From Elusimicrobiota bacterium (GTDB lineage Bacteria; Elusimicrobiota; Elusimicrobia; Elusimicrobiales; UBA9959): a DNA stretch of 45,456 nt. Each line of letters opens with the position of its first letter. Positions within the stretch are counted from its first letter, which is position 1. The notes under the pieces are model-generated. The model saw only the letters and a list, made by a program, of their open reading frames with translations. It did no database searches and was not told where the DNA came from. Positions 4,345 to 14,530 of this stretch are shown one piece after another. The translations under genes were made by a program, and so were the position numbers. The DNA is taken from positions 1 through 45,456 of the forward strand of contig JACRER010000056.1 in the NCBI GenBank assembly GCA_016234365.1, written 5' to 3'.

Positions 4345-5238
4345 TCAGGAGGTAAGGCTCGGCTTCGGGGCCCTCACGCGGAGGGCCGAAGGGAGCACGC
4401 TGAAGCGGATTTTGCCCGTGTCGGAGTAGAAATCCTCGCCGTCGAGGTGGTACCAGGAGGCGCGGCCGCAGTCGATGTCTATCAGTTTGCCTTTGAAGGC
4501 GGAATAGATGTCCTTGTGCCGGTCCAAACGGCCGGCGAAAAGGTCCGGCACGGCGGCCAGCAGGCGCGGCACGGAAGCTTTTTTTATGGAGACCAGGTCC
4601 AGCAGGCCGTCGTCGATGTAGGCGCCAGGCGCCACCTTGGCCCCGCCGCCGTACTGCACGCCGTTGAGCACCGCGTTCACCATGGCCGTGAGTTCCAGGC
4701 GCAGCCCGTCCACCACGGCCGTGGCCGGGAACGGCTTATAGCCCAGCACCCGGCGGGCCGCGTGCCAGACATAGGGCAGGATGCCCCGGCGGTGGCTCAT
4801 GGAATTAAAATCGTGCGCCACCTCGGCGTCCAGGCCCACGCCGGCCGCCACGAAGAACGCCTTGCCGTCCGCCAGCCCGGCGTCCACGCGGCGGACCTCC
4901 CACTCCAACAGGCCTTCCAGCGCGGTGTCGAAATCCAGCGGGATATAAAGGTTGCGCGCGAGGCCGTTGCCGGACCCGCAGGGAAGTATCCCCAGCGCCG
5001 CTTCTTTGCCGATGAGGGGGCCGGCAGTCTCGCGGATGGTGCCGTCCCCGCCGACGGCCACCACGGTGGCGAACCCGGCCTGCAGCGCTTGCTGGGCCAG
5101 TTCGGAGGCGTGGCCGCGGGCTTCGGTGAACGCGTACTCGAACCGGAGCCGCCTGCCGGAAAAAAAGTCTTTCAGGCGGCCCTGGATATCCGGCGTCCTG
5201 CGGCCGGCGTTGGGGTTGATGATGAAGAAGTAGGACAT
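4345..5238 (-). CDS. Diacylglycerol-kinase-family lipid kinase (YegS/DgkB-like)
   Basis: A 297-residue lipid kinase of the DAGK catalytic family, which phosphorylates diacylglycerol or a related lipid with ATP. It opens with FIINPNAG, and the nucleotide-binding GGDGT lies at 63-67. The PCGSGN motif (86-91) and DDGLLDL complete the family signature. No transmembrane segment is seen, so it probably works at the membrane face. It is cotranscribed with the downstream radical SAM gene (2-bp gap) and follows an anchored protein. The exact lipid substrate cannot be told from sequence. Confidence 0.88.
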   Translation of the reverse strand: MSYFFIINPNAGRRTPDIQGRLKDFFSGRRLRFEYAFTEARGHASELAQQALQAGFATVVAVGGDGTIRETAGPLIGKEAALGILPCGSGNGLARNLYIPLDFDTALEGLLEWEVRRVDAGLADGKAFFVAAGVGLDAEVAHDFNSMSHRRGILPYVWHAARRVLGYKPFPATAVVDGLRLELTAMVNAVLNGVQYGGGAKVAPGAYIDDGLLDLVSIKKASVPRLLAAVPDLFAGRLDRHKDIYSAFKGKLIDIDCGRASWYHLDGEDFYSDTGKIRFSVLPSALRVRAPKPSLTS

Positions 5239-5254
5239 AGGCGGGGACGGCCCG

Positions 5255-5932
5255 CTACTCTATGGCGCTCAGCCCGGTAGCCCAGGCGGCCTTGTCTCCG
5301 GTGGCGGTAAGCAGCGTCAGCGTATTGCCGGAGGCCGTCTCGCCTTTGGAGCAATGGAAGCGCAGCCGGTAGACGTAGCCTATGCGCAGGTCCGGGGCGC
5401 CGCCCAGGATCTCGGAATCGTCCACGTAAAGATAATCCACCCGTTTGCCGGCGCCCGAGTAGAGGAAGTTGAGGCGCCACCCGCGCTGGGTTCGCTTGGC
5501 GGTGATCATCTGCAGTTCCAGTTCCAGGTCCTTGCCTATATAGTCCTGCGGGGCGGAGAAAAAATCGTCCTGGGCGCCTTTCACCACGGCGGTGCCTGTG
5601 GTTTCCCCGGCGGCCGGCTCGGGCGGCAGCACCGAGGCCTCTATCATCGCGGGGGCGGGCCTGGGCGTTTTTACGGGTTCGGGCTTGCGTTCCTCCTGAA
5701 CCGGCCTGGTGGCGGGTTCGGGCTCCGGCGCTTCTTCAGCTTCGGCCGCGGTATCGGGCTGGACGGCCGGGTTGGCGGCCTCATCGGCGCGCGCAGAATA
5801 CTCGGGCTGGTATCGCGGCGCCGCCGCCGCAGGCTTGGAAGGCATGAACCGCTCCTTGAGGATGAAGCCGATAAGCGTCCCTATCAGGAAGAACAGCACC
5901 GTGTTTATCACCCGGAGGCGGAAAAAATTCAT
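5255..5932 (-). CDS. Membrane-anchored protein with Pro/Glu-rich linker
   Basis: 225 residues. An N-terminal hydrophobic segment (about 9-25) probably anchors it in the inner membrane. A long low-complexity linker rich in Pro, Ala and Glu (about 33-120) follows, then a compact C-terminal domain of about 100 residues that looks beta-rich. The layout suits a periplasmic protein on a flexible stalk. I do not recognise the domain. It is the first gene of the operon with the lipid kinase and diverges from the FecR-domain gene across a 55-bp AT-rich spacer. Confidence 0.65.
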   Translation of the reverse strand: MNFFRLRVINTVLFFLIGTLIGFILKERFMPSKPAAAAPRYQPEYSARADEAANPAVQPDTAAEAEEAPEPEPATRPVQEERKPEPVKTPRPAPAMIEASVLPPEPAAGETTGTAVVKGAQDDFFSAPQDYIGKDLELELQMITAKRTQRGWRLNFLYSGAGKRVDYLYVDDSEILGGAPDLRIGYVYRLRFHCSKGETASGNTLTLLTATGDKAAWATGLSAIE

Positions 5933-14292: not shown

Positions 14293-14317
14293 AAGCTGGT
14301 GCCCCCTAGAGGACTCG
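14293..14317. repeat. 25-bp direct copy of the tRNA-Arg 3' end
   Basis: The 25 bp at 14293-14317 are identical to 14450-14474. The latter contain the CCA end, acceptor strand and part of the T-arm of tRNA-Arg. The copies are 157 bp apart and in the same orientation. Duplicated tRNA 3' ends are the typical trace of integrase-mediated insertion, but no integrase is present here. Confidence 0.85.
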
Positions 14318-14447
14318 GTCACGGCTCCTGCGCTCGCCGCCGCTCGCTCCGGGCCGCGACCCCGGCTCAGCCCTGCGGCCAGCTGGCCGCAGGGCTTGCG
14401 CCTTTCGAGTCCTCCCGCGGGCCATCATTATGGCCCGCTTAGGGGGC
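14301..14447. repeat. Palindrome-rich segment bounded by inverted tRNA-3'-end-like arms
   Basis: Outer arms GCCCCCTA (14301-14308) and TAGGGGGC (14440-14447) are inverted, as are GAGGACTCG (14309-14317) and CGAGTCCTC (14406-14414). Inside lie a perfect 28-bp palindrome (14369-14396) and a 9-bp stem hairpin (14417-14425 with 14430-14438). No reading frame is convincing. It could be a non-autonomous mobile element or a structured RNA. Confidence 0.6.
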
Positions 14448-14453
14448 TTAAGC

Positions 14454-14530
14454 TGGTGCCCCCTAGAGGACTCGAACCTCTAACCTGCCGCTTCGAAGGC
14501 GGACGCTCTATCCAGTTGAGCTAAGGGGAC
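14454..14530 (-). tRNA. tRNA-Arg (anticodon UCG), CCA encoded
   Basis: Read on the minus strand it folds as a full cloverleaf. The acceptor GTCCCCT pairs with AGGGGGC (one G-T pair). The D-arm is GCTC...GAGC and the anticodon loop is CTTCGAA, giving anticodon TCG for codon CGA. The T-arm is AGAGG-TTCGAGT-CCTCT. Discriminator A is at 14457 and the 3' CCA is encoded at 14456-14454. Confidence 0.95.

What the first reader, a model, noticed from the sequence alone, without database searches (positions are those of the whole stretch)
14293..14530. tRNA-Arg 3' end copied once directly and once inverted around a palindromic segment
A 25-bp exact copy of the tRNA-Arg 3' end lies 157 bp away, and an interrupted inverted copy (TAGGGGGC, and TTCGAGTCCTC at 14404-14414) stands between the two. 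The enclosed segment holds a perfect 28-bp palindrome and a 9-bp hairpin. A direct tRNA-end repeat is typical of integration sites, but the inverted copy is not, and no integrase is near.
Basis: seen in the sequence. Interest (0 to 1): 0.55.

Follow-up and report, generated by a model that had tools for sequence, protein, structure and literature searches.

The report
tRNA-end insertions with tRNA-matching arms
Right behind many transfer-RNA genes of two groups of uncultured bacteria sits a small folded DNA insert of about 160 letters whose two arms match the transfer-RNA it stands behind, as if it carried a rewritable address label, and nothing like it turned up in the databases searched.

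Summary
The tRNA-Arg(TCG) 3' end (from C56 of the T-loop) recurs 157 bp away; between the copies lies a folded core with an inverted copy of the same tRNA end, split by a hairpin between tRNA nt 64 and 65. The genome has further copies behind tRNA-Arg(CCG) and tRNA-Leu(CAG); 81 of 101 genomes searched (own included) have a match. Of 160 distinct cores, 122 lie within 130 nt behind 36 tRNA kinds or tmRNA, mostly in Elusimicrobia and Patescibacteria. Arms match the own tRNA (9.2/11 against 6.8 shuffled), stopping abruptly at nt 54 and fading past nt 72. The core covaries strongly. At one locus 9 of 29 genomes are filled, 20 empty. Cores 95.5-96.6% identical sit on different tRNAs with different arms. 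No enzyme family tested, beyond Xer-type recombinases, is present in every rich genome. Best reading: a tiny non-autonomous insertion element, folded on the tRNA-sense strand, entering T-loops, with guide-like arms; enzyme unknown.

The parts
14454..14530 (-). tRNA-Arg(TCG), the target gene, intact
   Evidence: ARAGORN; Rfam RF00005 62.7 bits
14450..14474 (-). proximal direct copy: tRNA 3' part from C56 of the T-loop plus a few flanking bases
   Evidence: D1; start at nt 56 in the family
14440..14447 (-). arm 1: complement of the tRNA acceptor 3' strand (nt 65-72 side)
   Evidence: I5; family profile
14417..14438 (-). hairpin 1 (9-bp stem, 4-nt loop) splitting the inverted copy between tRNA nt 64 and 65
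   Evidence: I7; 99.5% of cells paired over 49 distinct copies
14404..14414 (-). arm 2: complement of tRNA nt 54-64 (T-loop and T-stem 3' strand); can pair with either direct copy
   Evidence: I1, I2
14369..14396 (-). hairpin 4/5, in this copy a perfect 28-bp palindrome
   Evidence: I3; helices 4-5
14317..14363 (-). hairpin 6 with conserved GGTCGCG/CGTGACC-type stem including an almost invariant G-U pair
14293..14317 (-). distal direct copy of the tRNA 3' end (second end of the 157-bp unit)
   Evidence: D1

Best explanation
A non-autonomous insertion element, 131-230 bp per unit (median about 166), that inserts at the T-loop (nt 55/56) of tRNA and tmRNA genes. Insertion leaves the tRNA intact, because its 3' part is present on both sides of the element. 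SHOWN: filled and empty sites at one locus, direct copies starting at nt 56, tandem units, arms that match about nt 54-72 of the own tRNA, and a covarying three-hairpin core. INFERRED: the folded tRNA-sense strand (RNA or single-stranded DNA) finds its target by pairing arm 2 plus arm 1 with the tRNA 3' half; arm 2 can switch between the two direct copies, which brings the unit's two ends together; arms and direct copies are taken over from each new target. The enzyme is not identified. Of the families tested only Xer-type recombinases are nearly universal, so a host enzyme or an untested helper is the likeliest source.
For: Arms match the own tRNA in 121 copies: arm 2 9.20/11 against 6.77 (sd 0.10, max 7.12 of 1000 shuffles), arm 1 5.09/7 against 3.94 (300 shuffles). 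The arm-2 result holds in two sets apart: 9.07 against 6.61 (55 copies from 58 loci titled Patescibacteria or plain bacterium) and 9.30 against 7.15 (the other 66). Edge: nt 54-64 at 0.87-1.0, nt 53 at 0, nt 65 at 0.21 in the arm-2 register; hairpin at 64|65 (103 of 121 copies). Core: 96.0% of cells paired, 35 of 46 pairs with two-sided change, 0/500 shuffles; second set 93.4% and 44 of 46. G-U 107 against A-C 13 cells. One locus 9 filled, 20 empty of 29. Tandem units. Cores 95.5 and 96.6% identical on Met and Arg tRNAs with different arms. A dispersed relative has 16 further model matches in genome G022, 14 showing the shared sequence; the two pairs compared are 94.9 and 96.6% identical.
Against: No insertion event was seen and no mobilising enzyme found. 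Nearest cores share the tRNA kind in 17 of 52 cases (4.0 expected), so much inheritance is by locus, and gene conversion could homogenise cores without jumps. The two Patescibacteria-type genomes with most matches (40 and 33) also have the most tyrosine-recombinase matches (3 and 4), and the window's own genome has one reverse transcriptase and four Y1 matches, so those enzymes are not excluded where present. Genomes are draft, so absences are soft. Several distal copies and outer parts of arm 1 have decayed. Within single genomes the own tRNA is best or tied in 18 of 25 and 7 of 12 cases only, with no random expectation computed. The fold alignments were fitted to a sense-strand model, which favours G-U over A-C. 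No leading/lagging bias.
Confidence: 0.55

Rival explanations
1. A mobile element, but the arms are not guides. After insertion the quasi-palindrome formed by the tRNA end and a roughly matching arm is corrected to a perfect one by template switching, so the arms follow the tRNA by mutation mechanism only.
For: In L015 acceptor, CCA, terminator and arm 1 form one continuous hairpin (read by eye); arms differ while cores are 95.5-96.6% alike.
Against: Correction would be expected to run on past the edge, but the match stops dead at nt 54 (AAAG of the core stays). In several Arg(CCG) copies arm 1 stays mismatched beyond about 5 nt (by eye).
Confidence: 0.2
2. A cis-acting structured RNA of the host that tunes tRNA processing or termination; arms pair with the tRNA 3' half, the distal copy is a decoy that releases them.
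For: Covarying fold with a nearly invariant G-U pair; sense-strand downstream of the tRNA in the 122 counted copies (same strand was a condition of that count); 26 of 42 genes of ARAGORN's list in one 680-kb stretch carry it.
Against: 20 of 29 relatives lack it at the same tRNA. A terminator-like hairpin often stands between tRNA and element (by eye). In L044 about 1.1 kb of other DNA intervenes. Tandem units and a dispersed relative look selfish.
Confidence: 0.15
3. Folded single-strand recombination sites of an integron-like cassette system acting at tRNA genes, with occasional gene cargo.
For: Cargo between copies: Fic protein gene between two Met-type copies in L059; ORF between tRNA-Gln and a Gln-type copy in L044; ORF between two copies behind tmRNA-like sequence in L122. 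Structure conserved, arms variable, as in attC (recalled).
Against: Integron integrase over cut-off in 1 of 101 genomes; in the 122 close copies no room for cargo; one tyrosine-recombinase match in G101 and G106, which hold 17 and 26 element matches.
Confidence: 0.07
4. Ordinary attL/attR of a lost tyrosine-integrase island.
For: Direct tRNA-end repeat beginning in the T-loop; a phage-type integrase and S24 repressor stand by one copy (L080).
Against: Inverted arms and a conserved core at 36 tRNA kinds; unit length about 166 bp; no integrase domain in the 10 neighbours of the window copy.
Confidence: 0.02

Closest known systems
MITEs and other small non-autonomous repeats (REP/BIME)
   Same: Short, no ORF, many copies, palindromic, would need help in trans
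   Different: Target is the tRNA/tmRNA T-loop, target-matched arms instead of fixed terminal inverted repeats, deep covariation of the fold, no parent transposase found
Integron attC sites and gene cassettes
   Same: One-strand fold, arms vary, tandem copies, occasional cargo
   Different: Arms copy the host tRNA; IntI over cut-off in 1 of 101 genomes only; own conserved core; stands at tRNA genes
IS110 family with bridge RNA
   Same: An RNA-like fold with sequence matching the target (recalled)
   Different: Both arms match one and the same strand; IS110 recombinase in 19 of 101 genomes and not in G000; element carries no gene
IS200/IS605 (Y1 transposases, guide bases at hairpin feet)
   Same: Subterminal hairpins and guide bases pairing with the cleavage site (recalled)
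   Different: Direct repeats present; match of about 18 nt; Y1 absent from several rich genomes
tRNA-integrating islands, tycheposons, casposons
   Same: Use of tRNA 3' ends, duplicated tRNA end (recalled)
   Different: Thousands of bases with integrase or Cas1 genes (recalled); no inverted, target-matched arms known to me

Membership tests
Integron / attC | IntI integrase in the genome | tested here: not met
   TIGR02249 over cut-off in 1 of 101 genomes, G034
Integron / attC | Folded one-strand site | tested here: met
MITE | Terminal inverted repeats | tested here: not met
   the ends are direct tRNA copies
MITE | Autonomous parent transposon with the same ends | tested here: inconclusive
   none seen in the loci read; no search made for it as such
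MITE | Short, non-coding, multi-copy | tested here: met
IS110 / bridge RNA | DEDD recombinase present where copies are | tested here: not met
   PF01548 in 19 of 101 genomes, none in G000, G001, G014, G026
IS200/IS605 | Y1 transposase present where copies are | tested here: not met
   PF01797 in 56 of 101 genomes (four matches in G000), absent from G016, G024, G026, G064, which have 10, 6, 12 and 10 model matches (matches include some antisense self-matches)
Retroelement (RT-moved) | Reverse transcriptase present where copies are | tested here: not met
   PF00078 in 27 of 101 genomes (one match in G000); none in G001, G014, G022, G026
Tyrosine-integrase island | Integrase gene in or beside the element | tested here: not met
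   none in 10 neighbours of the window copy; one beside L080. Genome level: one PF00589 match in G101 and G106, three in G104, four in G107
Known Rfam RNA family | Match above gathering score | tested here: not met
   only tRNA and tmRNA pass, in the 12 sources given
Casposon | Cas1 gene and TIRs | not tested
   Cas1 was not searched

The most novel reading that the evidence does not exclude
A minimal mobile element that is essentially a folded guide: about 160 nt, no gene, addressing tRNA and tmRNA genes by a bipartite match of about 18 nt on one strand, and re-writing its arms to match each new tRNA. That would be guided, re-addressable insertion by a host-supplied enzyme, spread over two bacterial phyla.
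Probability: 0.35. Interest if true: 0.92.

Novelty: categorically new. Interest (0 to 1): 0.8.

Why it matters
If the arms guide insertion, this would be a very small guided mobile element and a model for how guides are re-addressed. It would also account for a common feature of tRNA genes in some uncultured bacteria (26 of 42 genes of ARAGORN's list in one 680-kb stretch). If instead it is a host RNA, it is an unknown layer of tRNA control. Either way it is a family that Rfam 15 does not hold.

Tried and rejected
Chance duplication: rejected. Known RNA families: none beyond tRNA/tmRNA; the weak group II (E 0.23), ycf2 and microRNA hits are below their gathering scores. Integron integrase, reverse transcriptase, Y1 and IS110 as general drivers: rejected, each missing from several genomes with many matches; draft genomes make this soft, and RT and Y1 do occur in the window's genome. 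A dedicated tyrosine recombinase is not needed in G101 and G106 (one match each), but G104 and G107, with most element matches, have three and four. Serine recombinases, DDE transposases and Cas1 were not searched. Plasmids and phages: no match with the window copy; viral contigs: no match with the core pattern. LAGLIDADG-like ORF near the L158 copy: judged by eye, without a domain scan, to go with a group I intron in the tRNA. Leading/lagging bias: none. Literature: eight full-text searches listed nothing on such an element; I saw listings only and opened no paper. The library lacks most subscription journals and bioRxiv.

One search's single-genome part found only 5 copies per genome by a too strict pattern and was replaced. 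Model matches overcount copies: G000 gives 6 matches for 3 places because the palindromes also match on the other strand.

Full report
1. The tRNA-Arg(TCG) gene is at 14454-14530 on the minus strand. An exact 25-bp copy of its 3' end lies at 14293-14317, 157 bp from the original, and an inverted, interrupted copy stands between them. Read in the tRNA sense the order is: tRNA; arm 1, complementary to the acceptor 3' strand; a 9-bp hairpin; arm 2, complementary to T-loop and T-stem; a hairpin (here the perfect 28-bp palindrome); a long hairpin ending in GTGACC; and a second copy of the tRNA end starting at C56. The region folds far better than its shuffles (z = -6.7).

2. It is a family. The own genome holds two more copies, behind tRNA-Arg(CCG) and tRNA-Leu(CAG). 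A covariance model from these three found matches in 81 of 101 genomes, own included, among them a second family of the order. Matches overcount copies, since the palindromes also match on the other strand (6 matches for 3 places in the own genome). Ten genomes reached through such loci (seven titled as Patescibacteria groups, three plain bacterium) have 17, 7, 10, 40, 10, 26, 33, 6, 3 and 1 matches. On one chromosome of 859 kb, 13 of the 49 genes in ARAGORN's list have an element close behind and 4 of 17 elements are unassigned; in a 680-kb stretch of another genome 26 of 42 genes have one and 32 of 41 elements are assigned.

3. Place. Of 160 distinct cores, 122 lie within 130 nt behind a same-strand tRNA (36 anticodon kinds) or tmRNA (2), 13 lie further away (tandem units, cargo), and 25 have no tRNA in view. 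Several of these 25 lie at contig ends. Others follow genes or a truncated tRNA end, and L107 and L122 follow tmRNA-like sequence that ARAGORN did not call (by eye). L110 and L133 are a reversed, divergent variant beside tRNA-Arg(CCG).

4. The arms are those of the own tRNA. Over 121 copies arm 2 matches 9.20 of 11 bases of its own tRNA, against 6.77 after shuffling (max 7.12 of 1000); arm 1 gives 5.09 of 7 against 3.94 (300 shuffles). For arm 2 each of two sets shows this alone: 55 copies from loci titled Patescibacteria or plain bacterium, and the other 66. The per-base profile has a hard edge: nt 54-64 match at 0.87-1.0 (variable bases 57, 59, 63 and 64 at 0.94, 0.99, 0.91 and 0.87, against 0.50, 0.33, 0.48 and 0.33 shuffled), nt 53 at 0. 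Arm 1 takes over at nt 65 with 0.78-0.56 over nt 65-72, then 0.47 and 0.35 at nt 73 and 74, so that side fades. The hairpin sits between nt 64 and 65, with one extra base (103 copies). The distal direct copy begins at nt 56 (nt 54 and 55: 0; nt 57: 1.0 against 0.52) and fades beyond the tRNA (106 copies, chosen for having a distal copy). In single genomes the own tRNA is the best or tied best match in 18 of 25 and 7 of 12 copies.

5. The core is a conserved fold. On 50 copies (49 distinct) 96.0% of cells pair, 35 of 46 pairs show two-sided changes, and no shuffle or slid register comes near. On 80 copies from the second set of loci the figures are 93.4% and 44 of 46. These alignments were fitted to the model's structure, which leans towards it; a free RNAalifold prediction on the first gave 42 pairs, 33 with two-sided change. 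G-U cells outnumber A-C cells 107 to 13, and one G-U pair is kept in 48 of 49 distinct copies. This points to the tRNA-sense strand, as RNA or as single-stranded DNA, with the caveat that the model was built on that strand.

6. Insertion and loss. At the tRNA-Arg(TCG)-yebC locus, 9 of 29 genomes of the genus carry the element and 20 do not (one of the 20, L203, has another tandem repeat there); the sequence further downstream is shared, by eye. L103 holds three consecutive units from C56 to C56, one with masked bases, and other loci hold two. Cores 95.5 and 96.6% identical occur behind Met and Arg tRNAs with different arms. Nearest neighbours also share the tRNA kind more often than expected (17 of 52 against 4.0). 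Inheritance by locus and change of locus, or gene conversion, thus both leave traces. A related dispersed repeat with internally paired arms has 16 extra model matches in genome G022, 14 of which show the shared sequence; the two pairs compared are 94.9 and 96.6% identical, and the places look intergenic by eye.

7. No known engine. Integron integrase passes its cut-off in 1 of 101 genomes. Reverse transcriptase, Y1 and IS110 genes are missing from several genomes with many matches, though the window's genome has one reverse transcriptase and four Y1 matches. G001 and G026, with 11 and 12 element matches, show only four TIGR02249 matches, which I read as XerC plus XerD. One tyrosine-recombinase match is found in genomes with 17 and 26 element matches, but three and four in the two richest, and none in one with 3. 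Serine recombinases, DDE transposases and Cas1 were not searched. Plasmid and phage collections gave no match. Draft genomes make absences soft.

8. Mechanism. Shown: place, direct copies, arms, fold, filled and empty sites. Inferred: arm 2 can pair with either direct copy, bringing the unit's ends together; the folded strand recognises about nt 54-72 of the target; new insertions take the sequence of the target into both direct copies and, by guided choice or by later correction, into the arms. I put 0.55 on a mobile element with functional, guide-like arms, 0.2 on a mobile element with passively corrected arms, and 0.15 on a host tRNA-control RNA.

9. Known relatives. It works somewhat like an attC site (one-strand fold, variable arms) and like guided insertion (IS110, IS200/605; recalled), but a defining feature of each was tested and not met. 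No Rfam family fits the sources given. Eight full-text searches listed nothing like it (listings only).

Noticed in passing
L203:2451-2660: A second, unrelated tandem family at the same tRNA-Arg(TCG): two units of 96 bp beginning with the last bases of the tRNA (CGCCAGGGGGCAC) and holding a GGCGGTCC...GGACCGC hairpin.
   Followed up: no
L252-L271 (genomes G022 and G041): Dispersed 230-bp-class repeat with imperfect terminal inverted repeats (by eye) and the same internal core; 16 model matches in G022, some at contig ends.
   Followed up: partly
L043:470-760, L057:4980-5260 (-), L028 and L077 upstream parts: Similar non-coding stretch (ggaacttataa.gtt.cctcggg.tgttgcgc.aagta or parts of it, by eye) upstream of element copies that have no tRNA in view; may be another RNA. 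No Rfam match in L028 and L038.
   Followed up: partly
L080:4050-7063: Tyrosine integrase gene (4498-5532) directly beside a tRNA-Gln-type copy and an S24-type repressor gene 0.9 kb further on: a phage or island seems to have used the same tRNA end.
   Followed up: partly
L059:2474-3586: Fic/DUF4172 protein gene between two tRNA-Met-type copies, followed by a partial tRNA-Met from the anticodon arm on.
   Followed up: partly
L170:4534-6410: Five tRNA genes within 1.9 kb, each with an element match behind it; two Leu tRNAs carry what looks like the same long hairpin 6 (by eye).
   Followed up: partly
L158:2000-2260 (-): tRNA that looks interrupted by a group I intron, with a LAGLIDADG-like ORF just upstream (by eye).
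   Followed up: no
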